The translations under genes and the position numbers were made by a program. A model generated the notes under the pieces. That model made no database searches. It was not told the DNA's origin and saw nothing but the letters and a program-made list of their open reading frames with translations. DNA of 64,000 nucleotides from Beverwykella pulmonaria (taxonomy: Eukaryota > Ascomycota > Dothideomycetes > Pleosporales > Melanommataceae), in NCBI GenBank assembly GCA_001599595.1, contig BCHH01000015.1, positions 835,431 to 899,430 of the forward strand, in the 5' to 3' direction. This document shows, in pieces, positions 4,909-25,329 of this stretch (its first letter is position 1; each line of letters opens with the position of its first letter).

Positions 4909-7900
4909 CTAAGTCTCCATAGGGGTTGGTGCCGGCGCTCCCTTTACGGTCTGTAATGTTTCGCCTGTTGATGGTGGCACCTGCGCCCCATTAATATTCT
5001 CTCGTGGCTCGTTTTGAGGTTGAGGTCGCGCTTGCGGCCGCTCCTCCTCGTGATTAGTAGCATCGTGGTACTGGCTCTCTTGGCCCGAGTTGTCGCTCGG
5101 GGTCTGACCTTCATCGTCGGCATGGTCCATATCGACATCACCATCGTTCGGGCTCTGCGAGTTAGCGAGGCGATGGCGGTCGACCTGTTCCCGCTTGATC
5201 TCATGGTGGTGATCATGGTGACCTCGAACATGTGCCTGCGAGTGCCCAGACTGTTCTTCAAGTACCTTCCGGGCGTTGTCTTCCGCCTTCCTCGACTCCT
5301 CTACGCCCCTGGGGAACATCTTATTCATTACAAAATTGTGTTTCTTTTGGACGCTGGCAGTCAAGTCGGAGCCGGGAGGCATGAAGCTTGTTGGGCTCGG
5401 TGTTTGTTGATATCCGGGGGTAAAGCCCCGCTCTCCTCCCTTCTCCTCTTCCTTTCTTGCATGCACCTTGCGGAGGTTAGCCGCAGATGACTGCGAGCGC
5501 ATGTCTGGCCTGCCATCCTTGCGAATGAGGATGCCATCGGCATTTCGAATAGGTTTTGTTCGCGTCTTCTTGGTGTGTGCGTAAGGATCCATCGGCATAC
5601 CGCTCATGCCCACACTACCCGCGGTCACGCCTTGAAGCCCTAGACTAACAGCGCGACCACTAGAGCTTGGCCGGCCACTGGAACTGGAAGGGCGTCCTCC
5701 ACGCGTTGTCCCGCCACCGCCGCCACTTCCACGACGGATAATGCCTCCTCTAGAGCGCCCAAGAGGGCTATAGTATCCATTGGGACTGACCTGTGATTCC
5801 GTGGCGCCCTGCCAATCCTCCTTTTCCCATTCTGGTGTGCCAACTTGCACGTGGGCAGGCATGCTCTTCCGTCCGCGACCACCACGGCTCCCTGGGCCTC
5901 CACCTCGGCCACGGCCTCTGGGTGTGCGATGCTCGACGGTTCGTTGGGACTCAGATCGCCAACTATCGTCCGAAGGACCATCCTGTGTGCCATACGGAAC
6001 AAAGGCTGAATGCGAGTGCTGTGATAGGAGCGTAGATTCGGGTAGGGATTCGCGGGAATGCGCGTGAGACGATGGCAGCGAATGGGAATGCGTCTGAATC
6101 CTGGCATCAGAGTCGTCCGTGTCCACATTCTCGTAGACGTGTTGATGCGCATGACCTTGAGAGTTCCCATAGGCAACGCGGGGTTCAAGAGCAGCGAGTT
6201 TGGGGCGTTTTGGAGATCCCACAGGCTGTCCGATGGAATCGTGTGGGTCGTCGATACCGTTGGGATGGGCACGTTTGGCGCTTGTGTTGACGGTCACCCA
6301 CCCGCTCTGGGCCTGTGCGGGCTCAGCCTTCTGAGACACATCCGGGGTTGCTCCTGCAGAGTGGCTGCCGTGGGAATGGAAGGATTGGGGCCTGTGAACG
6401 GGGTGAACTGGAGTGTTAATGTGTGGCACGGCTGAGGGTGTCGAGTGGTAGGATTGAGCTGCATGTGAGGAATGGGCCGAATGAGCTGAATGGGCCGACG
6501 GCTCTCGCGGTGATTGAAATTGGTGCGCTACTTGCTGTGGCTGTGGCTGCTGGACAAGTGGCACAGTGGCGGCTTCTTCAAGTCGCTGAATCTTTTTCTT
6601 CATGATCTCGAGAGTAATTTTCAGCGTATCAACCTCGGTCGCCTTCTGGGAGATGATGGATACTTGGTCTGCCATGAGCTCGAGGGCAGCATCTTGAGCA
6701 GATACGGGGGCTCCGGCAATGCCAGCGTTCATCCCTCGCGCGGACACATCCCGCAAAACCTGCACTTCACGAGAGATGCTCTCGAGCATCTCGTGGATGC
6801 CTCGCATTTCAAGCTGCAGTCTTCCCACCGCCTCGTCGACGCGGTGTATCTCAGAACTTTGATGGTGCAGCTGGCCCTGGATCTCTCGACGGAGGCTCTC
6901 CGATGAGCCCTCGTAGCGTCGCATGTCGCGGCTGTGAGCAGAAAGAGCGCTGCTGTTCTGAGAGATTTGAGTCTGCAGACGCTCCAGGACATCGATCTGG
7001 ACCTCATTGGGGGACCGTGGGTAGTGTTGGCCATTGGTGCGTTGCTGCTCGACAGGCGAATGGACGTGCGACGTGACTGGAGGGAGATCCCGCGTGCGAT
7101 TGGTTAAGCCGACACTCGCCTCTTTGGGAAGTGGGTGGTGTGGTGGCTGTGTAACGTACTGCACATCGTGGACCGGCTTCACAGCAGGCGACGGCGACGG
7201 CAGTGGATTGCTGGGTGATTTCTGCGGAATCGAATGCGGAGGAACTGAGGCGGTAGGAGAGCGAACTGATGGCGGTGGCAGTGACTGACGATTGGCTTCG
7301 ACCTGGCGTAGCGGCTGGTGGTGATGATGATGGTGGTGCGGCTCGTGATGTGGCTCGTGGCGGCGGTGGTGGTGTTGCTGGAGACCTAACGATGGAGGTT
7401 GCGGTTGGGATGCATGCTGCACTGGACGCGTATCGACTTCCATCTCGTCGGCGGGAGCACTGACTGTTGGAACGGGTGATGTTGGTCTGGGTGAATCTTC
7501 AATGAGCAGCGGCTCTGGTGCAGCGTCCACCTGGGGCTCAACCACGATGCTCTTGTTTGGCGATATCTCGCATCGCAGTTCGATGCGCGGCAATTTAAAA
7601 AATTCCCTTCCCCTGCCGGATATATAAGTCAGTAAGAAAGAAGACGAATTGCTTGAGTTTGTGAGAAGAAAATGATAAATGTGGGCATACTATATGTTAT
7701 ATGGCGACGCTGTGTTAGTACATAGGCTCTGCAGGCGGCGTGCATGCACCACCCCGGCAGCCCAGCGCCACACAGGCGACCCGCATCACGCACCTCGGAT
7801 CGCAGACTTTGGAGCAAAACCAACAAGGAAAAATGAAAGGACTGATGAAGAAAACTTACCGGAACGATTGTTTGCCTTTCGGCGCGTCGACGGCGGTGAA

Positions 7901-8646
7901 TCTAAAGGCCGAGGTCAGTGTAGTTCTTCAACGTGGATGTGGACACCTGGGGCTTGCTCACCCCAAAATCTCGTTGCAGCTCGGATTGGGACAGGCCAGC
8001 GGCTGGATCAGACTGGGCAGGTGTCAGTAAAATGGTGTCGATAGGTAGGTTGCTCAGCGCAATGCGGACAGGCGGGTTTAATAGATGATAAACGTATAGT
8101 GTGGAAATTATTTGCAACGGCCGATTAGTGCAGGCGCGCTTGGAAAAAAAAATTAAAATACCATGTCCCCATTGATTGGAGCCGGGATAAGCTCTCATAA
8201 ATGCTAGGGGTTATTGATCGAGGGCTCGACTGGGAAAGGGAAATAATGTGTGACGACACAAGAGGGATCGGCCCAGGGCTAAAGGTAGCAGCTTACCATC
8301 CATCTAAATCCGTCGACATCGACGCCGCTTTTTGCTTGCCATGCTCCCTGAGTCCTGATCGATATGACCCGAGAAGCGCTGGGAGGTAGTACGTGCTCGT
8401 GATCCGGTACCACGAATTGTAGAATTCGCCCACCACCTGGAGACAGCGCTTGCAAACGCCTGTCGCAGACCTGTTTGCGGGCGACTGCGGAGACGGCGAG
8501 CCGTGGTCGACGCTCTCGGCCACCTCGACGTCTGCCTCTCCTTCGTCGGCCGTCGACGCAGTGCGCGATGCAGAGCGCTGGTGCTGGAGTTGCACCGCTG
8601 CTGCGGCTGTATCGCTAATACGAGCGCGTCGCCTTGTTCCTGCCAT
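4909..8646 (-). CDS. Mis18/Yippee-like zinc-binding protein with a long disordered, coiled-coil tail
   Basis: Four exons: 8646..8297, 8012..7962, 7901..7860 and 7612..4909, giving 1048 residues. Introns have GTAAGC, GTGAGC and GTAAGT donors and branch sites TACTGAC or ACTGAC; all phases agree. The N-terminus holds CKRC (C65, C68) followed by VVGEFYNSW. After the first intron comes GCLIQPLACPNPSC (C117, C124, C129) with NEILGF, then QSFRGREFFKLPRIEL. This pattern of CxxC..VGE, GC...C..C..xLGF and a terminal basic strand is that of the Mis18/Yippee fold, which in Mis18 helps load the centromeric histone CENP-A. Residues about 390-500 form amphipathic coiled coil. The rest is low-complexity: His-Pro-Gln rich near 225-250, an RGG-rich patch near 700, and a conserved-looking segment with KPIRNADGILIRKDG. 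Family Mis18 proteins are much shorter (about 200 residues), so the tail is unusual. The second metal site has four residues between its cysteines instead of two. Assignment to Mis18 is inference. Confidence 0.68.
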
Positions 8647-10148: not shown

Positions 10149-12677
10149 TCACTTTACCACGACGAATCCAAGCCCCTCTCGCGCGCGCTGGCATGCCTGT
10201 GAGAGGGCCTGTACTTCCGTATCCGTCCACTTGACGCTGAGGTTGTCCCAATTTTTTGTCTGATATTCGCGGAGATATTGTTGCCGCATTGCAGTCAGCC
10301 GGTGAATCTCTCGAGGATCCCCCGTTCCACTATACACGATAAATGCCGTGCAGCGTGGCAAAGAATCGAACACTTTGACAATGTGGTCGACGGTCCTAGA
10401 AACAGCGTCGCCGAGCTCGGCCCCGGTGACTTCCACCTCCTCGTCTCCTTCCGACGAGTATCCTAATCTCTTTAATGCTGTTTGTCGAATAATCTCGTAA
10501 TCAGTACTCCTTGCATCCTCCCACCATCCACGAATGAGTTCAAGCTCCCGGAATCGACTCCAAATAAAGTCTACCTTTTCAGCAGCGCCGTCTTTACCCT
10601 CAGCGTGACCTCCTACTGCACGCTCGATCCCTTCAACGACATCTGAATCACTCTTGCATCCAATAGCCATTTGCGCTTGACCACCATGTCCTCGAGTTGG
10701 ATCGCCCCAGTCAATCACCGCGCCCGTTCTTGACGAGCCGTTGGACTTTGGTCGTGTCGTTCGCCCCAACCTCTTGAAGATTGATTCTGCATTCGTTTCG
10801 CTGCTACCCCATCGTGGACCGCGCTCGCACTTCTGCTTGAGCAGTTCAAGACATGCACGGGCATCTTCGACGCTGTCGTGGCCTTTGGCGCCGTTCTTTT
10901 GGATCTCTGAGGAGAGGTATCTCTGCGCTAGGAACTTCAAAGACTGCTTATATGGTGGCCCTCGTGCATGTGGATAGATTATAGCTGTGTCGATGAGAAA
11001 TGGGTGCGTGAATTTGAGTGCATTCAGATCCGAATTCAGTGAGTGCCCTACAAGGATCGTGTGCGGAGTCATAAGTTCCAATAGCCGCTTTTGAATATCC
11101 GCGAGAGTGGTTGTGACATCTTGCAGCATGGCCTCTGTGATACCGGAGTACCTAGGAATAGTTAGTGGAATGTATGTCAGCGCCTGCTTGCGCACTTACT
11201 GCGTGAGGTAGTCCTTGATAGCTACCTCGGGGTTTACCAGTTCATCAAGCACCACGCTGCCGTCCCAGTCAACAATACTGACTCGCGTGAGCACAAACTC
11301 GTCGTGCTCCGACTTGCACATCTCGCAATCAACGGTCAAGATGCGCCTTCCCGCTGTTACACTGCCCTGCTCAATCTCGCTGTCGGGTACATCTCCGTCT
11401 TCGAGACACGCGATATTGCTGTCGACCCAACCGTCGTCTGTCGTCTGCTTGGCGGCCTTTCGGCTCTGATAGGCGGCATCTTTTGCCTCTGGTGTCGCAA
11501 ACCAGGCCGGATGGAGTGCATATTCATTTTCGCGTTGCTCAATGAGACTAGCGATGTACTCAGTAGCAGGCGTACGCTTATTCACCCAGTCCTTCGTGTT
11601 CTGGGGAAGCGGGCCCTTATGATTTGAGTTCTTCTTCATCTGCTTCTCCTCTTTGGTTTTTGGTATTTGTGAGCTCAGCATTGTGTGAATTGGTGAGTGA
11701 ACTTTATGATACTGATTGCCACGATGTTCGCCAGAGCCGCTGATAGGCCAAACGTGAGGGAATATGTCCGCGAGAGGCTTGAGAGCTTGGGGCAGTCGAT
11801 GTAGTTGAAGACTGGCTGGGTAATAGTCATCGGGTGAGATATGTAATCGTTTAGGCTTTGTCTCCTGTTTATCAGTAGGAGGCGAGCTGTCAAGAGTCTT
11901 CTGAGAATCGCCGTCCTGTGCAGATTTAGAGGACTGGGCAGAGTCTAGGGAAATGTCACCATTGAACATGCCCAGTTCCAATCCAGGAACCATGAGAACG
12001 ACAACTTGGCGTATATTCATGCGATGCCGTACAGACACCCACTGAGGTGCGTTACCATCTGCAAGTAAGTACAATACTAAGGATTGTAAGTCGGAGATCT
12101 TCAGTTTCGATTGCAGTCGAGCGTGATGGGAATGTTCGATGGCCGGGTAATTTCGGTCCACCTTGCGCTCCTTTCTACGCTTTTCTCTCTCTCTCTTCTC
12201 CATTGTAGGCTCGTCCTGTACATATGGCGAACACTCAGCAACCCGTTGTGTCCCCTCATCCTCGTTGTTGTCCTTCTTCGTTGTTGCGAACGGGTTGGCT
12301 GAGCGTGGGCCGGCGTCATGCCCTTGCGCAGCGAATGGGTTTATAGGGTGAAGTGAGTAATCAGCGGCTGTGGTCTTATGTTGGTGGATGTCGGTCTCCT
12401 GTTGTGTGGGCGGCGAGTTCGGTGCATGGGAGTTGAAATGACAACAGTGACAGTTGGAGTCATGCGCAGGGGAACGTTCCTGTCGATCGCCTAGGTCTTG
12501 AGACTTCCGTTTCTTCTTGGGCGCCCCGATTGTTGTCCAGCCGCCGCCGTCATCGTCGACGGCGGGCACTGGAGTCGGGTTGTTTTCTGCATGCGCTTCG
12601 TCCTTCAATCGCGCAAGGGTTTCACCGAGGCCGTAGTTGTGGACCTCCTCGTGGTGACCCCTTTTTCGCTTGACCAT
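10149..12677 (-). CDS. rex1: RNA exonuclease of the Rex1/REXO1 (DEDDh) family
   Basis: Two exons, 12677..11200 and 11151..10149, joined across a 48-nt intron (GTAAGT donor, CACTAAC branch site), give 826 residues. The start is the ATG giving MVKRKRGHHEEV; the longer open frame upstream has no ATG. The first 440 residues are charged and partly disordered with basic stretches (KKKRKS, REKRRKERK), suiting a nuclear or nucleolar protein. The exonuclease domain starts at about 445: TVDCEMC carries the catalytic D450 and E452, GHSLNSDL carries D534, and KGHDSVEDA carries H584 and D589. The intron falls inside this domain. In the family these enzymes trim 3' ends of 5S rRNA, tRNA and other small RNAs. 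The C-terminal 180 residues extend beyond the usual domain and are not recognised. Confidence 0.92.
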
Positions 12678-13345
12678 TTTGGGCTGAATACAGGCCCGAA
12701 GCTTGTAGAATGAGGTCTTGGGTGTGGAAGTCGCAGGGAGCCTGGGAGCTTCAAGAAAATGTTGATGCAGCAAACCGAGGATGGTCTGTGTTTCTGACTA
12801 TCCCGGATCGGGATAAGCACGGAAGCTTATCTAAGCCCCGTGATAACTTCACATATTTATAGTTATCGCTTCATCAGAACTAGCCTATTAATGAGATGGG
12901 GACTAAATATCTTTACTTTCACCGCCACTTTTAGCCTGTGCGTTAAGCGGTTTGCCTTTTCCTCTCAAGCAGATCCCAAACTACCGTTGAGGATGGCGGA
13001 CAAGAGAACGAGACACGACTATTGGATGGTATGAACTTAGAGAATTTTGTAGATGTAAGTTAACAGCAGGAGATCACCACGCTAGCTTCCCCGTTAACAA
13101 TGTCAGCAGACACCCAAAAGGATGGACGGAATACTGGTGCGCCAATCTAAAGGATTAATTCGCGAAGTACCATTCACGCCATCCTGACGAGATGCTCCTC
13201 TGAACCGCTGGCAACTCTGAGATATGTATTAATATGTAATCGTAGCCTGTACTAAGATGGTATTCGCTTGCCTTTGAGATGTGAACATGATATATATAAA
13301 GGCTCATTCCTCTGCAACTTCGCTCTTTGCGCTATCTAACCCGTT
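12678..13345. other. Intergenic region between rex1 and the RiPP-like precursor
   Basis: About 670 bp containing the 5' region of rex1 and the 3' region of the precursor gene. No coding frame or RNA gene is supported. Confidence 0.45.
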
Positions 13346-13603
13346 TTATTTAAACTGCCTCTTCTCTGCAGAAACAGCCTCCCCTTCAACACCCGCGGGA
13401 ACATTGTATCCAAATTGCCGTTTCTCAGCGGCAGCGGCTTCTCCTTCAACACCTGCTGGCACATTGTACCTGCCTCTTTTCGGCGACCGCGACCTCCCCT
13501 TCAACACCAGCTGGTACGTTGTAGCCAAATTGCCTCTTCTCTTCGGCTGCAGCCTCGCCTTCGATGCCAGCTGGTACATTGTACCCGAATTGCCTGCTCT
13601 CGA
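13346..13603 (-). repeat. Tandem 60-nt coding repeats of the precursor, four units, one 5 nt short
   Basis: On the minus strand four copies of a unit encoding FGYNVPAG(I/V)EGE plus an Ala-rich spacer and KR follow one another from about 13603 to 13348. Units 1 and 2 are in the frame of the signal peptide. Unit 3 lacks 5 nt just after its KRQ codons, next to about 13464. Units 3 and 4 then read in another frame to a TAA at 13346. Codons differ synonymously between the copies, so peptide rather than DNA identity has been kept. Confidence 0.85.
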
Positions 13604-13711
13604 CTGCTATTCAAATTAACAACGTCCTGGACAGAAATATTATCTTTACTTACTCGCAAGTGGAGCGGCAAGGACAGTTGCCACGAAGGCAAGGACCATA
13701 GTGTACTTCAT
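13446..13711 (-). CDS. Secreted repeat peptide precursor, dikaritin-type RiPP candidate
   Basis: Exon 1 (13711..13654) starts at an ATG and encodes 19 residues that look like a complete signal peptide (MKYTMVLAFVATVLAAPLA). A 47-nt intron (GTAAGT donor, TTAAT branch region, TAG acceptor; a CAG three bases later is equally possible) leads to exon 2, which reads to a TGA at 13446, 72 residues in all. Exon 2 carries two full 20-residue units. Each holds FGYNVPAG followed by a small acidic Ala-Glu spacer and a Lys-Arg pair, the classic Kex2-type cleavage site. This arrangement of signal peptide, repeated Tyr-containing core, acidic spacer and KR is that of UstA-like precursors of ustiloxin, phomopsin and asperipin type. 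The third unit is 5 nt short, so the frame is lost and the protein ends early. Two UstYa-family genes lie directly beside it. The family call is inference from architecture and neighbours; the core sequence matches none I know. Confidence 0.72.
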
Positions 13712-14326
13712 CTTGGTGGAAGTATAAGTGGTTTTTATGATATCAGAGAAGGGTGTCAGGCATGGGAGTCTGCACTGAGAGGAAAATCGAAGCTACTTAT
13801 ATCATGGCTCACTGCCCTGCACGCGCACTCTTCGACCGAAATAGTAACCAATTTCCCTCTCCAGCCTTCAACCTTCTGCTGCAACGGTAGCACAATTCTT
13901 CGACGAATAATAACAGTACTAGAGCAAGTAGTAGATACCCGACGTATCATCAACCCTTCATTTTGTGTGTGGGTGTTGGAAAGCCACAAACTTACCTTGA
14001 CCTTCCAATTCTAGGTTTTTGCTCTCCACCATTTGGGATATGGACATTGCATGCATGTTTTGGAAGTTGTTGGAACTAGGTATTCGCGTTAGCATCCCGA
14101 TATGGGACGCAACGTAGATCCACCAAACCCCCCAGTATGACCTTCCTCTTATGTACATCGCCGACATAATCCTCAAGCATCAAAATATCTGTGGTCGAGC
14201 TCTTTGGGTCTAAACCTCATCGCTAGGTCTTCCGGATCTGCTTCTCAGTCCCGCAGTCACTGTTTTATAGATTTCTTTTCTCTACAGTCCCACACAGCGA
14301 ATCTACAACACCACCATTCTCCCACC
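13712..14326. promoter_or_regulatory. Divergent promoter region between the precursor and the first UstYa-family gene
   Basis: The precursor (minus) and the UstYa-like gene (plus) start 615 bp apart and point away from each other, so this interval must hold both promoters and could co-regulate them. I see no clear cluster-specific operator. Confidence 0.5.
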
Positions 14327-15048
14327 ATGTTCCTCAGTGAGCACAAGACCAACACATACGAAGGAATCCATTATAAGACCCTCGAAGACGCAGACTCTCC
14401 ATCCTCAAATGGTCCCAAACCCTACCGTTTCCGCACCATTATCTTGCTCGTCACTGCCGGAATCACAACTACGCACCTTCTCATATTTTTCATCTTCCTT
14501 TCACGTCATACCATTACATCGAACCCACGCTATATTCACGATACTATCCCTGATGAAGACTGGAATCACTGCGGGCGCTCAAGTAAAGTAGCAATAGAAA
14601 AAGGATGTATTATGGAACCTCTTTTCTATGGCTGGATGCCCCCTCAGTGCGTCTTCAAAGAATTTAGCAACCGCTTTCCAGTTTTTGAGGATCGAGAATG
14701 GTTTCTAGACCAGAATCTCACTGTACTGGTTCCAAGCGAAGAGCTGTGGCTTGGGAAGCACATCACCATCTACACGAATAGGTCAGTATTCCACTCTCTT
14801 CAACGCAAGAAAAGAGATGCTGGATCGCGCTGATATTTCGTAGATATCACAGTGAACACTGTCTCTTCCAGTGGCGCAAACTGCAATACGGCATACACAA
14901 CCGGGTCGAGTTCCTAGATAACAAAACCGTCAGTCTAGGGCATTCAGGACATTGTGCCAATCAACTCAGCGGTGGACATTGCGAGGGTGCGCCTAATTTC
15001 AGTATTGTGGAGCTCGGGTTCTATAGATGTCGGAGGACGGTATGGTAA
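14327..15048 (+). CDS. UstYa-like (DUF3328-type) membrane-anchored oxidase candidate
   Basis: Two exons, 14327..14781 and 14844..15048, joined across a 62-nt intron (GTCAGT donor, TAG acceptor, phase 2), encode 219 residues. A short cytosolic N-terminus is followed by one transmembrane segment at about 36-60, so the protein is a type II membrane protein of the secretory pathway. The lumenal part has WNHCGRSS, GCIMEPLFYGWMPPQC and two H-x-x-H-C motifs, HSEHC (154-158) and HSGHC (185-189). Paired HxxHC motifs are the hallmark of the UstYa family, whose members oxidise and cyclise fungal RiPP precursor peptides. This copy belongs to the divergent branch with a Cys-rich GC-(M/F)-x-P-L-x-Y-x-W-x-P-x-x-C block. 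A good splice donor overlaps the stop codon (TGGTAAGT), so a further 3' exon cannot be excluded. Its position beside the repeat precursor supports a role in maturing that peptide. Confidence 0.75.
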
Positions 15049-15828
15049 GTGGATATCGGTTGGACTGCATATGCATGCGAGAAGGATGTTGGTTCAAGCA
15101 TTCCTTGGTATGGATTTTGGCGAACGTCTGGTTCGATAAGGGGTAGCATAAGTGTGGGTTTATGTGAGGACCGCGGGGGAAATAGTCGGATATTTTCCGG
15201 TTGTAGCTTTCGGGGTTGATGTGGCTGAGAAGAGAATGGTTATGCGGAAGAAGAAAAAATCATATTTGCATATCAACTCGTTTCTGTCCCTAGTAGGCCC
15301 CATGTTGAAATACATCGCTAGCCCGACGATGCTTGCTCAGTCTCCTAAAAGGAAGGAGCTCGATACCCGTAGGATTCAAGAATAACCGAGAACACTAGAT
15401 CTTACTTACCTTGTGAAGCCTATCGCCAAATCAACAAATATGGCTGGGCTAACTATTTCATGAGAGTCGGCGAATGGTGTCTTTGAGGTTAGAGTCGCAA
15501 AAGCTAGCAAACCTCTAAAACCAAAACATCTCTTACTTTGCATAACTAAGTTTTTTGGGTTCTACCGCATCTGAATGATTGTTCCACCAACTCACACCTT
15601 GACGCCGATCGTGCTGGGCCAGTACTACCATACATACGCACGAATCCATTTATGGCAGGAGCGCGGGTTCTCCGATAAATACGGACTACAGCCTGATGGC
15701 TTTGAGCGATCTACTCCATCCTTTTGCTGCCTTCAACAAGCATGGACCACACATAGGTTCATCTCGTATTTTCCAACTCCAAACTTTGCTCTCTCAACCT
15801 ACCACTCGCTACATCATCGTGCTTGGAT
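15049..15828. other. Spacer between the two UstYa-family genes
   Basis: About 780 bp. The open frame 15152-15385 has no ATG at its start and no recognisable motif. The sequence probably holds the 3' UTR of the first gene and the promoter of the second. Confidence 0.45.
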
Positions 15829-16706
15829 ATGGACAAGGACGACCTTTCCACCACGCCGTTCCTCTCTCATGAGGATGCCCTTCTAACTAAGAAACCTTCA
15901 CGACGGCGAAACTCACTTCTTCTCATATTAGCCACCGTTTCACTTCTTTCCACTAACCTTTTCACCTTCGCATTCACAACGCAGTATTTTCAATCATCCG
16001 TATCCGAGCCCCCCACTGGCATCCCTAAAATCCTATCATCACTCCCCCGCACAACTTCTCCTAGACTGCTAAACGCAACACTATATTCCTACGATAACAT
16101 CTACCGTAATCATTCCTCTCTCGAGACAGACGCTGCATGGCGGGCTCTCGTTCCCTCGGAAGGCGTCTTCTTCGTGCAGAAGGGCGATGAAGAGAGAGCT
16201 GGTATCGATGCGAAACGTCATGTGTATTGGGATGACAAAGAGAAAGGGTTAGTCGGGTATCCAGTGAGCAGTGAGGCGATACATCATTTACATTGTGTGG
16301 ATATGGTGAGGAGACATTTGTATTTTAATGTTGAGCATACGGCGAGGTATTACACCGAAGAGGAAAAGGGGGTACCGGAGAGGTATCGAATGCTACACAT
16401 CGGTGCGTATCATGCTCTTCATTTACGCCTAAAAGGGAAGGATTTTTCATTGTGTGGGAGTTAAAATTGATAAGAGATCACTGTATCGATATGCTCCGCG
16501 AACGACTTATGTGCACTGCTGATCTGGGCCTTATTCCAAGGTTCTGGTTGAAGGACGAGGGCACAGCGCCGGATTTTGCGCGCATGCATACATGTCGGAA
16601 TTACGACGCGATAATAGAGTTTATGGTGATGAATGCGCGTCCCATGCCGAAAAAAGATGAGATATTGCCGAAGGAGGGAGACTTCGTTCTGAAGGACTAC
16701 ATATAA
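15829..16706 (+). CDS. UstYa-family (DUF3328) oxidase
   Basis: Exons 15829..16402 and 16477..16706 with a 74-nt intron (GTGCGT donor, phase 1) give 267 residues. The ATG at 15829 is used because the longer frame upstream begins with TTG. Residues 1-28 are cytosolic and basic near the membrane (KKPSRRR), and one transmembrane segment spans about 29-52. The lumenal domain has WRALVPSEGVFFV, then HHLHCVDMVRR (HHLHC at 152-156) and, right at the splice junction, HIDHCIDMLRERLMC (HIDHC at 190-194), followed by TADLGLIPRFW. These are the two conserved copper-ligand motifs of the family, both intact. UstYa proteins catalyse side-chain cyclisation of ribosomal peptides in the secretory pathway. Together with the neighbouring UstYa-like gene and the KR-repeat precursor it forms a minimal RiPP locus. 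No methyltransferase, tyrosinase, peptidase or transporter gene lies immediately beside it. Confidence 0.9.
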
Positions 16707-18250
16707 TTGAGAAAATTATATGAGATGTTGACTGGATTGCACTGAGATGCTCAAGTATTGGTTAGGCTTGATTTGTTGAATCTTCAGGACCAGCGAGGCT
16801 GCAAAAATGCACCACAATCATTCTACGTGTGGCTGAATCCAACCAATCAATAACTGAAGCTCCCTCGTGTTACCTATATAGCTAGGGGCTGCACTGCGAG
16901 AGAATCAAAGGAATAGGAAAGACCCGCCCCGTAAAGGTTAATACACGCCGTGAAAGCTTCTGCGTGGCTTCGATTATTTTCTCAGAGCAGCTATACGTAT
17001 CTTCCTCTGCTGCGAGAGTGCACCTTGGTAGAAAACTGCCGAAGGAAGAGGGTGTGGCTAGCAAAGGCGATGTAGAATTGAAGTCACTGGGCTCTACCAA
17101 TGGTGTGGCCCTGATATGCTGATGAAGTGGCGAAAATTCAGATATGGGGCCTGTCGTGGTCTGTTGTCGTGATGTTTTGGATGCTTCCCGAGTGTTGTTC
17201 GTTGCCTAGGACCCACTTAAATTCAAGCTTTGCGGATTGGCCAATGGCAAAACGCCCTTCGGCACTAGTGCGCTATCTCATTCCCCAAAGTCTCACAGCT
17301 CTGAACATTTTTGAACCGCAACCTTTCACCTTCACCTTCATCACAACCGCGTTGTGGTGCGCGTTTCTGTTCGGCTTGTTGGTGTAGGTGAAGTTTTTCT
17401 TTTCAATCGCTCATGCCGATTTTGGAAACCCTGTGAAGCTGACAAATTGCGTCAAGAACCCGCGCCTTTGACTGGGCAACCTGCTTCCACCTCACCCCTC
17501 CTCCACTCCAATCCAAGGAGGCAAACATCTGCCTCGCCACGCATCCTCACGCCTCACCTCTCCCCACATAGTTTGGAGATTTAGAGAATATATAGTAAAT
17601 ACACTCCCTTAATACCCAGGCAGCGCTCGTCCTGCTTGTAATCGCACGAGTCGAGCTCATCCGAGAAACCTCATCGTCCGCCCAACTACTCCTCATCGCA
17701 CCGGGATTTACGGATAGTAGCGATATTTCTGGGTTGGAGGTGGTGGCCTGGCTTGAGTGCGTTCACGGCTGGGCTGAGAATAACGGGTCTGCAGAGCGGA
17801 CTTCCAGGAAAGCGGGGAGCGTTAGGACGGGCCAGCAGTGTCTGTAGTCCTCCACTTTATATAAGAGATTTTATGGTGTCCCATTTGCTTGGACGACATC
17901 CTGGGTTCTCGTGGTAGGCCTGGTTACCGACTGCACCCGTCCTGGAAGTTGAAAGAGTAGGCTAGAGGCCCTTTCACTTTCACTACCAACGGCACTTTGG
18001 CCAACACGCGTCAACAGGACGCGAACTCCATCCCAACGTCGCTGGGACTACAACCCCTCAACACGAAGTATACACGGTTCGCGTTTGGTTGCCTGGGTGT
18101 TTCCCTTCCCCGCTGGACTATTTAATTCCACCCACACCCCGCCTCTTTCAACGCTGCAGCGACCTTCCTAGTTGCCTCCAGCAACCCAACCTAACCGTCG
18201 CCGAGTCGTGCACCGTCTCAAGCCTTTCGTTATTAACGAACTACGCGGCT
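16707..18250. other. Intergenic region with the rad53 promoter
   Basis: About 1.5 kb. The final 250 bp before the rad53 ATG are an open frame without ATG, best read as 5' UTR. Several short frames in both directions show no domain, and no RNA gene is visible. Confidence 0.5.
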
Positions 18251-21200
18251 ATGGACAACGACGAACCGACGCAGCCGGCTACCCAGCAAGTGCTGGACCC
18301 TCGCAGGGTTGGAGGGAACCACTCCGGCCTGGACGAGAAGGACATCGCCGACGTCCTGGCCATACTGCACCCGGGATCACCCGGTGCTATCAAGATAGTC
18401 GAAGACACTGCAGACACGCGCAGACACCATGTCTTGCTCCGTAACTCGTACGACTCGTACGATGACGAGTTTAGCGATATCGAAGAGCAAGAAACGATAA
18501 TCATCGACAGGCCTGGCGAACAATCTGGCTACAACTCTCGAGCTGGAGCTGACCTCGCGCTCCGAATGTCATCCGTCGGATCCTTGAAGCACCCTAGCCT
18601 TGGCTTTGTCTTTGGTCGTAATGCTGCCAGCTCCGACATTGTGTTTGGCCAAGATTCGGGAAAGCGGATAAGCAATCAACATTTCCGCATCTACCTGAAC
18701 CCAGACGCTATTTTAATGATTGAGGACATGTCCACTAATGGCACTATTGTCGACGAGGTCCTGCTGAAGAATCGAGATCCGAGGTACAGCAAGGTGCGAA
18801 TGCTGGGGTCTGGCTCCATCATTTGCGTACAAAATGCCAGTGATGGCGATATGATCAAGTTCATCGTCCGCATTCCGTCTCGCGTCTCTCACATGGACCG
18901 CTTTCAGAGAAACCTCCGAGAATTTCTGACTCACTGTATCCCGGACGTGGACAAACCTAAAGGTAAGCATCGCATCAGTGTTGCTTCAGACTTCACTAAC
19001 TCTGCTGGTAGTCATTCAGCGATTGGAGAAACAGTACGGCGGGCCAAGGATGAAGTGGGATGGTGGTGACCGATACAATATCATAGGTTTGTGATTTGAT
19101 ATGGCACCCTCTTTTGTCGTGATTCTGACTTCGAGTAGGTCTCCTTGGAAAAGGTGCATTCGCTACCGTTCACCAACTGGCCACCAAGATGGAAGGAAAA
19201 CTTCTGGCCGCGAAAGAACTTGAGAAGCGGCGATTCATGAAGAATGGCCAACTCAATAAGAGTATAGATAACGAGATGAAGATCATGCAGGACCTCCGAC
19301 ACCCAAACATCGTTGAGTTCGTTGAGTACCACGATCAAGGAGACTACCTATACATCATCATGGAATACGTACGCCACGGAGATCTGCAGCTCTACTTGAA
19401 CAAAAATGGCCCGATGGGGGAAACACAGGCGAAATCCATGGCCAAACAGATTCTGAGTGGGCTCAGCTATCTCCATCGGATGAAGATAACCCATCGCGAT
19501 ATCAAGCCGGATAATATATTGATCTCCGATGTGGATCCATTCACAGTCAAGATTTCGGACTTTGGCCTGTCCAAGGTCGTCAAACACGACGAAACTTTCC
19601 TCAAAACGTTTTGTGGTACTCTGCTCTACTGCGCCCCAGAAGTATTCCCCGATTTCGACGGAACGCCCTCAAAGGGAACCAAGCGTCGACGCGGTGCAAA
19701 ACAGCAATTTCATTCTTACAGTTCGTCTGTAGATATCTGGTCGTTTGCCGCCGTCCTCTGGTTCGCGCTGTGCAACCAGCCACCGTTCGAAGGTATCGCA
19801 GATGCCACCGGCCGTGCGATGTACAATAACATCATGACCACACGCCTAGACCCGACTCCGTTGAGGCAAGCAGGCGTTTCTGAGAGTGGTATCAACCTTC
19901 TCTGTCAGATGTTACAAACGGATCCCGCCAATCGCCCCACAGAGCGACAATGTCTGCAACACCCATGGCTAAGGGACGATACCGCACTTCCCGATGATCA
20001 TGTTCTTCAGTCTATCGTGGAAGAAGACGAGTATGAGGAGACTGGCGAGCAGCTTTCTCAGCTCAACATTGATGCAGAAAACCTAGAATCCGGTGATGAG
20101 TTGGGTGATGATATTCTTGAGGACGAGGAATTTGACCAGCTTGTGAACAACAGGCAGTCAAAGAAGATTCGAACAGATCCACTTTTCCCGCGCAATCAGC
20201 TGCGAGATCTCGAGCATGTCTCCAGTGCTGCCCAGTCCTTTCATTCACAGCACGGCATCGATGAAGATGAGAGCTTCAAAGTCGTACAGAAACCTTCTGG
20301 CCGACCGCGATTGTTTGGAGAGATCGGACAGTCTGCCCTGCAGAGCTCGGGAATACTGAACGTTCATGCAAATGAAGCTCTCTCTCACGAGGCGTCCAGC
20401 AGTGCGGCTGCGGCACAGAGCGATCCATCTCGAAGCGGAGATTCCCGACAGGAATCGCCTCCACTCCAGGGTGTTCCTCGTCTTGATGGTGCTTTCTCTT
20501 CTCCGAGTTTGCTCGGCGCCGAATCCATGGTACGCGAGCTCAATATGGCATCTCCACATTCTCCTCTTTCCAATGCCCATAGTCCGAATGAGCCCACGAC
20601 GCCAAGGACTCCAGAGGTGCCTCAACATAACTCTCTGGAGCATTCAAACCAGCACCCTAGTCAGTTCAGCGATGCGACACCTAAGGCCAAGCCTCCAACG
20701 TTGAATCGCCAGATCAGCCTCCCGAAGACGGCGTCATTCTACTACGATCCCTACGACCCGAATACGCATAATCTCGAATATGCGTCCAAGATGAGTGGCT
20801 TTGATTTTGTTGGTGCAGCACAGGCAGCCAAAGCTGGTGCAAGCGAACTCGACGACACGATGAGGGTCTCAGCCCAGAATGACCAGTCCAGTGAAGGAGA
20901 GGAATCTGCGGCCGCCGGAATCGACCTTTCTCTACTGCCGGGATTGGATATCAAGCCGCCACCCCGACGGCTGGGCAAGCTCACCGCCACATCGGACTCT
21001 TTCGCACCAGGTCTCACCTTGATGATCGACCAGAGTCGCACTTCGTGGGGTCGCCTTCCTGAGAATACGCTTGTGTACGAAGACATCAAGGACACTCGTG
21101 TCCCCAAGATCGCCTTCATCATCTTTTGGTGGTCATCAAGCGACGATACCCAAGCGTCTGTAAAGGAGCTCTCTCAGCAAGGCAAAGATTGGACGACGCT

Positions 21201-21462
21201 AGACAGCCTCCATGTTGGCATCTTCACCTGTGCAACGTCAGGGATTAGTGTCAATGGCAAGCACCTTCGGAAGGTGGATGAGAAAGGCCGACCGCTATAT
21301 GGTCTCCTCCACAGTGGCGACATCATTCAAATTTATCATGCCTCGAAGGGCAGGGAGTGTCTCCGATTCAGATGTGAATTTTATCATGGGTCCGGCAAGG
21401 AGCCACGACCCTCTGGTCAAAGCTTCAACATTATCCCAGGTAACAAATTGCTGGACGACTAA
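18251..21462 (+). CDS. rad53: Checkpoint kinase Rad53/Cds1/Chk2 with two FHA domains
   Basis: Three exons, 18251..18962, 19012..19086 and 19139..21462, encode 1036 residues; the introns are 49 and 52 nt. The start is MDNDEPTQPATQQ; the open frame upstream begins with a TTG. FHA1 lies at about 115-190 with LGFVFGRN, the phosphothreonine-binding region KRISNQHFRIYL and STNGTIVDE. The Ser/Thr kinase domain runs from about 262 to 560: glycine loop GKGAFATV, AAKE lysine, catalytic HRDIKPDNIL near 380, DFGLSK and CGTLLYCAPE. Acidic and Ser-rich disorder follows. A second, weaker FHA lies at about 880-990 with TSWGRLPENT and GISVNGKHL. Two FHA domains flanking the kinase are typical of yeast Rad53 rather than animal Chk2. 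The protein transduces DNA-damage and replication-stress signals in the nucleus. A run of SP sites such as SPHSPLS in the linker are plausible phosphorylation sites. Confidence 0.96.
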
Positions 21463-23940: not shown

Positions 23941-25329
23941 TCACACCGGCACCGTTAATGGATTCATAACGCTCGCCCCACCATCAACCCTCACCTCTGC
24001 CCCGGTAATGTAACTACTAAACCCACTCGCCAAAAACCCGGCCACACGTCCAACCTCCTCGGGCCTCCCCGCCCTCTCCAACCCAATAACCCGCTCTTGC
24101 ACCTCTTTACTCTGCAGCCCGGCGGGTGGAAACCCCTCTCCTCCATCCTTACCAGCACCTTGGCTCAAATCCACCCCGACATCAATCTGACCCGCCGTAA
24201 CCGCATTGATCCTGACCCCAGTTCCCTTCAGCACGGCTACGCCCGCCCTCACCACCCCCAGCGCAGCGTGCGAAGATATCGTAAATGCGGGACCCCAACA
24301 CCCGCCGTACGTCGCTGCGACGGACGTCACGACTATTATAGAGCCGTAGGGCACGGGTTTAGGGGCTGCGTTTGGATACGAGTGCAGCGGTGAGAGCTTT
24401 TGCATTGCGGCAGGGGCGTATTTGAGCGCGTAGAAGGAGGGGAGTGTGTTGGTAGTGAGGAGGGATTGGATGTCGGCGGGGGAAGTTTGGGTGATGGAAG
24501 GGGGACCGAGGATCGAGGTCGACGCGCACCAGACGTCTAGCCGGCCCCAGGAGTTGAGGATCTCGTCAATGAGCGTCAAAGTGTCTTCCTCGGACGAGGT
24601 AGAGTAGGGGTACCCGATTACTTTTGTGTTGGGGTACATAGTGTTTACGCTGGCCGCAAGCTCAGTGTAGGGGTCGCTGGGAGAGGCCGAACAGGCATAT
24701 ATGCAGGCAACTCCGTGAGCTGTAAAGAATGGCGTGTTAGCTGGGTGTGGGTTGAGCGTTTGGAAGTGGTCGGAGTTGAAGATGAAGTTGGAGTGGAGCT
24801 TAGGGGACGTTGAGGTGAAAGGTATGATATATCTGAATTCGGGAAATAGGTTCATGGATTGGAAAGATGTGATGTCGACCATGAATGGTAGAGAAAGATA
24901 TCAGAACGAAAATACACGGTGCTGGTGTCTGTATTGCACCCCACTATCCTTCAATTCGAAGAATGACAGCATCACATAAGAGCGCTCATTGTACCGAAAC
25001 CGTGACCAGAAGGGAAGGAAAGAGCTACTCACCAGCAAGCTCAGTCACAATTGCCTTTCCAACAGGCTGCGTAGCGCCGGTCACGACACAGACGAAACCG
25101 TACTACTCAATTCGAGTCAAATTAGCAGAGCTCTCTTATTTCCATTCCAATCACAGCTCCTTTCGAACAGCACTCTCAACGCTCTCCTGTCTGTCTTCCA
25201 GAAAGCAAGAGATACAGCAAAGTGGGACGAAAGAGACGAACTCACAAGTTTCCCATCCGCTCTATATGGCGAAAAGTGCTCTGATTCCGTGGTCCCCGGC
25301 GGTGCTTTCGATGCATTTGCGTCTGCCAT
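23941..25329 (-). CDS. Short-chain dehydrogenase/reductase homologue lacking the catalytic Tyr and Lys
   Basis: Exons 25329..25246, 25102..25033 and 24719..23941 encode 310 residues. The introns are 143 and 313 nt; the second is long for this window and could hide another small exon. The N-terminus is followed by a Rossmann strand and nucleotide loop YGFVCVVTGATQPVG, which deviates from the usual TGxxxGxG. VWCASTSI stands where SDRs have NNAG. The catalytic serine strand VTSVAATYGG is kept. The usual Y-x-x-x-K helix reads AFTISSHAALGVVRAG, with Phe in place of Tyr and His in place of Lys. INAVTAGQID and the C-terminal FLASGFSSYITGAEVRVDGG are standard. The fold is therefore clear, but dehydrogenase activity is doubtful. 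It may bind a nucleotide or ligand without turnover. Substrate and pathway are unknown. Confidence 0.82.

What the first reader, a model, noticed from the sequence alone, without database searches (positions are those of the whole stretch)
13346..16706. A minimal, apparently undescribed dikaritin-type RiPP locus
Three adjacent genes fit one pathway. The first is a secreted precursor with KR-bounded repeats containing FGYNVPAG; the others are two membrane proteins that each have two intact HxxHC motifs (HSEHC and HSGHC; HHLHC and HIDHC). UstYa-type proteins next to UstA-like precursors define ustiloxin, phomopsin and asperipin clusters. The core here differs from the YAIG/YVIG, YVIPI and FYYTGY cores known to me. 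The locus has no tyrosinase, methyltransferase, protease or transporter immediately beside it, so the product may be a simple cyclised peptide, or the missing enzymes lie elsewhere. The locus sits between the housekeeping genes rex1 and rad53, which suggests insertion into a conserved neighbourhood.
Basis: partly seen in the sequence, partly recalled or inferred. Interest (0 to 1): 0.88.

Follow-up and report, generated by a model that had tools for sequence, protein, structure and literature searches.

The report
Small fungal cyclic-peptide gene locus
A fungal chromosome carries a three-gene set that probably makes a small modified peptide from a repeated precursor with two likely copper-dependent membrane enzymes, one of which belongs to a protein family not found in the Pfam family database, and the precursor gene is shortened by a frame break.

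Summary
The locus is real but not quite as described. On the minus strand lies a secreted-type Kex2 repeat precursor (ATG 13711, one GT-AG intron) with four repeats carrying QFGYNVPAG cores. Repeat 3 is five bases short, so the frame breaks and the plain spliced product is 72 aa with two whole cores. Divergent from it are two membrane proteins, each with two HxxHC motifs. B (15829-16706) is a clear UstYa/DUF3328 (PF11807, 138.6 bits). A (14327-15048) has no Pfam match; it has 56 homologues, all fungal where a species is named, and the motifs are kept in 29 and 30 of the 32 that cover them. Profile comparison of A with UstYa is suggestive, not significant. A and B homologues carry consecutive gene numbers in Aaosphaeria arxii, and a decayed A fragment sits beside a decayed UstYa fragment elsewhere in this genome, so the pairing looks old. 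Best reading: a minimal dikaritin-like locus in which Kex2 frees the cores and A/B, as copper oxidases, cross-link Tyr in YNVP. Precursor-plus-UstYa loci are common in fungi; the new parts are the core and the A family. No product, expression or orthologous precursor is shown.

The parts
13446..13711 (-). Repeat precursor gene, plain gene model: exon 1 13711-13654 (signal-peptide-like N-terminus), intron 13653-13607 (GT-AG, 47 nt), exon 2 13606-13446; 72 aa, two whole QFGYNVPAG cores, each between R/KR sites, then a short frame-shifted tail and stop
   Evidence: no homologue
13346..13445 (-). Rest of the array (most of repeat 3, repeat 4 and a natural-looking ..KRQFK stop) in another reading frame after a 5-nt deficit in repeat 3
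   Evidence: repeat lengths 60, 60, 55, 60
13712..14326 (.). 615-bp divergent promoter region between precursor and gene A
   Evidence: coordinates; compared with the B promoter without a clear shared motif
14327..15048 (+). Gene A: exons 14327-14781 and 14844-15048, 219 aa, predicted TM helix (about 32-63), HSEHC 154-158 and HSGHC 185-189; no Pfam family
15829..16706 (+). Gene B: exons 15829-16402 and 16477-16706, 267 aa, UstYa/DUF3328 (PF11807), HHLHC 152-156 and HIDHC 190-194

Best explanation
A small dikaritin-like RiPP locus. The precursor enters the secretory pathway by its N-terminal signal; Kex2 cuts after (K)R and frees ~18-aa units QFGYNVPAG(I/V)EGE... In the ER/Golgi lumen the membrane-anchored proteins B (a UstYa) and A (a second double-HxxHC protein outside PF11807) act as binuclear copper oxidases. 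Most likely they join the Tyr phenol oxygen to the beta-carbon of the Val two residues on (Y-N-V-P), as in the Tyr-x-Ile cores of known dikaritins; trimming by general peptidases and secretion follow. Shown: gene anatomy, the repeats and their codon-level constraint, the UstYa identity of B, conservation of A, one Kex2-type gene in the genome. Inferred: signal function, copper, cross-link type, that A and B act on this precursor, and that the shortened precursor is still used.
For: Repeats with KR sites and synonymous-biased variation. B hits PF11807 at 138.6 bits. A has 56 homologues; the two motifs are kept in 29 of 32 and 30 of 32 rows that have letters there, C82, C94 and C108 in all rows with letters (54, 55, 54). 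The AlphaFold model of A (pLDDT 84.6) has a long N-terminal helix and then each HxxHC on one of two successive long helices (no coordinates seen), as described for the copper enzyme CctR (PMC12435403, parts 1-2 of 3 read). A and B homologues have consecutive locus tags in Aaosphaeria arxii. A decayed A fragment lies about 200 nt upstream of a decayed UstYa fragment, same strand, on contig C12. Over many fungi DUF3328 genes are commonest at the gene next to a repeat precursor (PMC7329392, section 7 read). One PF01483 (Kex2-type) match in the genome.
Against: The precursor array is frame-broken. No precursor homologue was found. A has no Pfam match; hhalign of A against the B family is not significant (E 0.041, probability 1.3%), and with a wider UstYa alignment (E 0.024, probability 2%) it aligned the N-terminal/TM parts, not the motifs. 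No solved fold matches A. The gene next to the precursor is A, not the true UstYa. No expression or product data. The A. arxii A protein as annotated lacks both motifs, perhaps an unspliced model, perhaps decay. In Thozetella the A and B homologues are on contigs of different length.
Confidence: 0.6

Rival explanations
1. The locus is decaying: the enzymes are still intact but the precursor has lost half its array, and the pathway is silent or on its way out.
For: 5-nt deficit and frame break in repeat 3; a related A/UstYa pair on C12 is already a relic, its A part with stops; the A. arxii A model lacks the motifs.
Against: A and B read through without stops with GT-AG introns; two whole cores with cleavage sites on both sides remain; the part of repeat 3 after the gap, and repeat 4, still show mainly synonymous differences (repeat 3: 8-9 synonymous against 2 non-synonymous codons per comparison; repeat 4 against 1 and 2: 8 and 6 against 1 and 0), which suggests a recent break.
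Confidence: 0.2
2. A linear Kex2-released signalling peptide (pheromone- or hormone-like); A and B act on something else.
For: Mating factors and other signals are made from Kex2 repeat proteins, and 6,120 of 7,878 such genes have no DUF3328 neighbour (PMC7329392, abstract and section 7); Gln-led cores could simply become pyroglutamyl peptides (inference).
Against: Divergent adjacency with A and a UstYa gene next to it; the core contains Tyr; per the abstract of PMC7329392 almost all (three exceptions) mating-factor or pheromone KEP genes lack DUF3328 neighbours.
Confidence: 0.1
3. A is not an oxidase of this pathway: a separate membrane protein family whose double HxxHC is convergent.
For: No PF11807 hit for A; 1 of 57 members only, at E 0.03; a similar weak match to the Fe/Mn superoxide dismutase hairpin; hhalign not significant; the 57-row A profile ranks UstYa ORFs only 1 in its top 10 and 4 in its top 20.
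Against: With the 36-row A profile UstYa ORFs make up 5 of the top 10 and 8 of the top 20 hits among 3,721 ORFs of which 34 are UstYa-like, against 0 and 1 for the reversed profile and at most 2 and 2 in 10 column-shuffled ones. Pairing with UstYa in A. arxii by gene number and in the C12 relic.
Confidence: 0.2

Closest known systems
Asperipin-2a cluster (aprA/aprY/aprT/aprR, Aspergillus flavus)
   Same: Small locus, Tyr-containing core from a precursor gene, DUF3328 oxidase, no tyrosinase among its four genes (PMC6514808 passages)
   Different: One DUF3328 protein, a transporter and a reductase beside it, core FYYTGY; here two double-HxxHC proteins, no transporter or reductase adjacent, core QFGYNVPAG
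Ustiloxin and phomopsin clusters
   Same: Signal-led Kex2 repeat precursor plus UstYa proteins; core has Tyr followed two residues on by a beta-branched residue (YAIG; the phomopsin core as given in the finding and recalled; here YNVP)
   Different: Tyrosinase and methyltransferase (ustiloxin), tyrosinase-type and S41 peptidase genes (phomopsin-type) belong to them; none was found here
CctR (cyclochlorotine hydroxylase, DUF3328)
   Same: Single TM helix, lumenal HxxHC(x)nHxxHC on helices; shown to bind two Cu per monomer (PMC12435403)
   Different: Acts on a non-ribosomal cyclic peptide; A here is outside PF11807
Kex2-processed repeat proteins (KEPs), Umemura 2020
   Same: Signal + KR-bounded repeats; 22% of 7,878 KEP genes accompanied by DUF3328 genes
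   Different: Core not found in the main text; the supplementary list could not be searched

Membership tests
Dikaritin-type RiPP locus | Precursor with secretion signal and repeated cores between Kex2 sites | tested here: met
   signal judged by eye from the sequence only; array frame-broken after two whole cores
Dikaritin-type RiPP locus | UstYa/DUF3328 gene near the precursor | tested here: met
   B, PF11807 138.6 bits, second gene from the precursor, with A between
Dikaritin-type RiPP locus | Oxidatively cross-linked product derived from the core | not testable with these tools
   needs metabolomics and deletions
Dikaritin-type RiPP locus | Tyrosinase, methyltransferase, transporter or peptidase in the cluster (classic but not required) | tested here: not met
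   none next to the three genes; 30 of 87 window ORFs scanned; an MFS gene lies at 1-1041, beyond the exonuclease gene; no tyrosinase match on contig C15
UstYa/DUF3328 (PF11807): protein B | Match over Pfam's cut-off and two HxxHC motifs | tested here: met
UstYa/DUF3328 (PF11807): protein A | Match over Pfam's cut-off | tested here: not met
   0 families at E<=1; 1 of 57 family members at E 0.03
UstYa/DUF3328 (PF11807): protein A | HxxHC(x)nHxxHC on helices after an N-terminal TM helix | tested here: met
UstYa/DUF3328 (PF11807): protein A | Remote homology to UstYa | tested here: inconclusive

The most novel reading that the evidence does not exclude
A founds an undescribed family of double-HxxHC copper oxidases, outside PF11807 and spread over several ascomycete classes, that works as an obligate partner (perhaps a heterodimer) of a true UstYa in peptide cross-linking, so that part of the fungal RiPP tailoring repertoire is invisible to Pfam-based mining.
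Probability: 0.3. Interest if true: 0.65.

Novelty: new variant of a known kind. Interest (0 to 1): 0.42.

Why it matters
Genome miners find dikaritins by DUF3328 hits next to repeat precursors. If A works like UstYa, a conserved family without a Pfam model is being missed, and the A+B pair would offer a test of whether such copper enzymes act as partners. The core itself (YNVP) would test whether 'Tyr, any residue, beta-branched residue' predicts the cross-link.

Full report
What is there. The window is part of a 45.6-Mb genome in 31 contigs with 58 UstYa matches (G000:C15:835431-899430), so a fungus, by its homologues one of the Pezizomycotina (inference); the species is not known to me. On the minus strand an ATG at 13711 opens a 58-nt exon encoding MKYTMVLAFVATVLAAPLA, followed by a 47-nt GT-AG intron and an exon with the repeats. 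The array has four repeats of 60, 60, 55 and 60 nt. Each of the 60-nt ones codes for a core QFGYNVPAG(I/V)EGE, a spacer and KR; repeat 3 lacks five bases just after its CAG, which breaks the frame. The plain product is 72 aa with two whole cores; what follows lies in the frame of an 86-aa open stretch, 13346-13606.

More than chance. In the first 14 codons of repeats 1, 2 and 4, 11 columns vary, 9 of them at codon position 3, and one codon changes residue (I/V); of all single changes to 13 codons of repeat 4, 30 of 117 are synonymous. The KR-repeat scan gives no other hit in the 64-kb window and none in 60 block-shuffled loci, and hits in 4 of 20 fetched UstYa loci of this genome (in L030 part of the repeat region is masked). 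At the finding's own locus the scan sees only the repeat 3-4 frame. The synonymous bias extends past the break, which suggests that the break is recent.

The two membrane proteins. B (267 aa) matches PF11807 from 22 to 240 at 138.6 bits and has HHLHC/HIDHC; its intron lies inside the second motif, and the relative P0057 departs from the family at the same place. A (219 aa) matches nothing in Pfam at E<=1 (NCBIfam, a prokaryote library, also gives nothing for A or B). A has 56 relatives at 31-74% identity, in named fungi and in metagenomes, all called hypothetical or uncharacterized where named; by genus names (recalled classes) they span Dothideomycetes, Sordariomycetes and Leotiomycetes. Of the 56, 29 contain two HxxHC, 1 contains one and 26 none; 9 of those 26 end in the K or R of the exon-1 border (my count from the list), and others show tails that look like unspliced intron, but I did not check each. 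In rows with letters at the motif columns, 29 of 32 and 30 of 32 keep HxxHC. C82, C94 and C108 are kept in 54 of 54, 55 of 55 and 54 of 54.

Is A a UstYa? By Pfam, no; 1 of 57 family members hits PF11807, at E 0.03. A direct profile comparison is not significant (E 0.041, probability 1.3%, though it aligns both motifs, wider UstYa set: E 0.024, probability 2%, but aligned at the N-terminal/TM part). The 36-row A profile ranks UstYa ORFs high: 5 of its top 10 and 8 of its top 20 among 3,721 ORFs with 34 UstYa-like ones; reversed profile 0 and 1; ten column-shuffled profiles at most 2 and 2. The 57-row profile is weaker: 1 of 10 and 4 of 20. No single hit is significant (best UstYa hit E about 0.1). 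That hit (L028) aligns across both motifs. The AlphaFold model (pLDDT 84.6) shows a long helix at 32-63 and the two motifs on helices 154-170 and 183-194; I saw no coordinates. CctR, a DUF3328 protein, carries two coppers per monomer, with its HxxHC motifs on paired helices in a predicted model (PMC12435403, parts 1 and 2 of 3 read). So A probably works like a UstYa; I do not file it as a member.

Do A and B belong together? In Aaosphaeria arxii the A relative is BU24DRAFT_459419 and the B relative BU24DRAFT_459418, both from a contig of 5,130,532 bases; consecutive tags suggest neighbours, but I could not read the locus, and that A model lacks both motifs. In Thozetella, the only other named species among the 4 hits of B, the relatives are on contigs of different length. 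In this genome a 50-residue A fragment with three stops (40% identity) lies about 200 nt upstream, same strand, of a UstYa C-terminal fragment in which the second motif is lost (PF11807 E 0.0008, 19.8 bits, under the cut-off of 25). A thus has one intact copy and one relic here; a further weak place on C7 (E 0.078) looks like chance.

Surroundings. Flanks are an RNase_T-type exonuclease on the minus strand (hit at 10152-11195; the adjoining ORF 11199-12797, probably the same gene, has no hit) and an FHA/kinase gene on the plus strand (17966-21459). Of 208 ORFs of 90 aa or more, 87 were kept after removing those largely overlapped by longer ones, and 30 were scanned; no tyrosinase, methyltransferase, peptidase or P450 hit appeared. 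The rest were not scanned there. An MFS transporter lies at 1-1041 and a short-chain dehydrogenase at 23944-24900, both beyond the flanking genes. GC falls to 46-47% over 13-17 kb against about 49-55% on either side. The genome search gives one Kex2-type P-domain match and 38 tyrosinase matches, none on C15.

Mechanism. Kex2 release and lumenal copper oxidation follow from what is known of the families. The core contains Y-N-V-P, that is Tyr, any residue, beta-branched residue; ustiloxin's core is YAIG, and phomopsin has a 13-membered ring closed by a Tyr-Ile ether (the phomopsin core sequence and the position of that Ile are recalled). [quoted passage not shown] I therefore expect a Tyr-O to Val-C-beta bond. 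That step is inference.

Known or new. KEP precursors with a DUF3328 neighbour are common: 1,758 of 7,878 (PMC7329392, abstract and section 7 read). A small cluster without tyrosinase is known from asperipin-2a (PMC6514808, passages). The core was not found in any open-licence main text nor in the main texts of the two KEP surveys; their supplements were not readable here. What is unusual is the pairing of a true UstYa with a double-HxxHC family that Pfam does not know.

Noticed in passing
L025 (G000:C3:343000-352900) 1943-2512 minus: Another repeat precursor near UstYa genes: 13 similar units like NDEAIAYPESYKR in one ORF; AYPESY is in no searched main text.
   Followed up: partly
L021 (G000:C17:311500-321400) 6417-6791 plus: Repeat precursor near UstYa genes with units like DRDEDIVYPDTGLYAENGKR; YPDTGLY is in no searched main text.
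   Followed up: partly
L017 (G000:C4:330500-340400) 4915-5526 minus: Signal-led repeat protein between UstYa matches with unusually long (~41 aa) units ending GKR.
   Followed up: no
L030 (G000:C7:2387500-2397400) 6887-7984 plus: Repeats with di-histidine (EPHHKGKGKK) near a UstYa gene; part of the stretch is masked and reads N.
   Followed up: no
L037 (G000:C12:57800-59400) 796-647 and 450-214 minus: Decayed A fragment with stops next to a decayed UstYa C-terminal fragment.
   Followed up: partly
G000:C3:4549360-4551225 and G000:C20:10504-14549: Tyrosinase matches lie about 0.5 and 3.2 kb from UstYa matches, so other loci of this genome may have the classic tyrosinase + UstYa make-up.
   Followed up: no
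G000:C12:220935-221066 plus (L012): Weak match (E 0.139, 34%) to the precursor in an open frame of 176 aa.
   Followed up: no
window 14327-15048 (protein A): The A profile (positions 146-189) weakly matches the N-terminal part of Fe/Mn superoxide dismutases (best E 0.0025, 9 chains at E<=10; Pfam Sod_Fe_N in 1 of 57, E 0.023). Could be convergence of a histidine hairpin.
   Followed up: no
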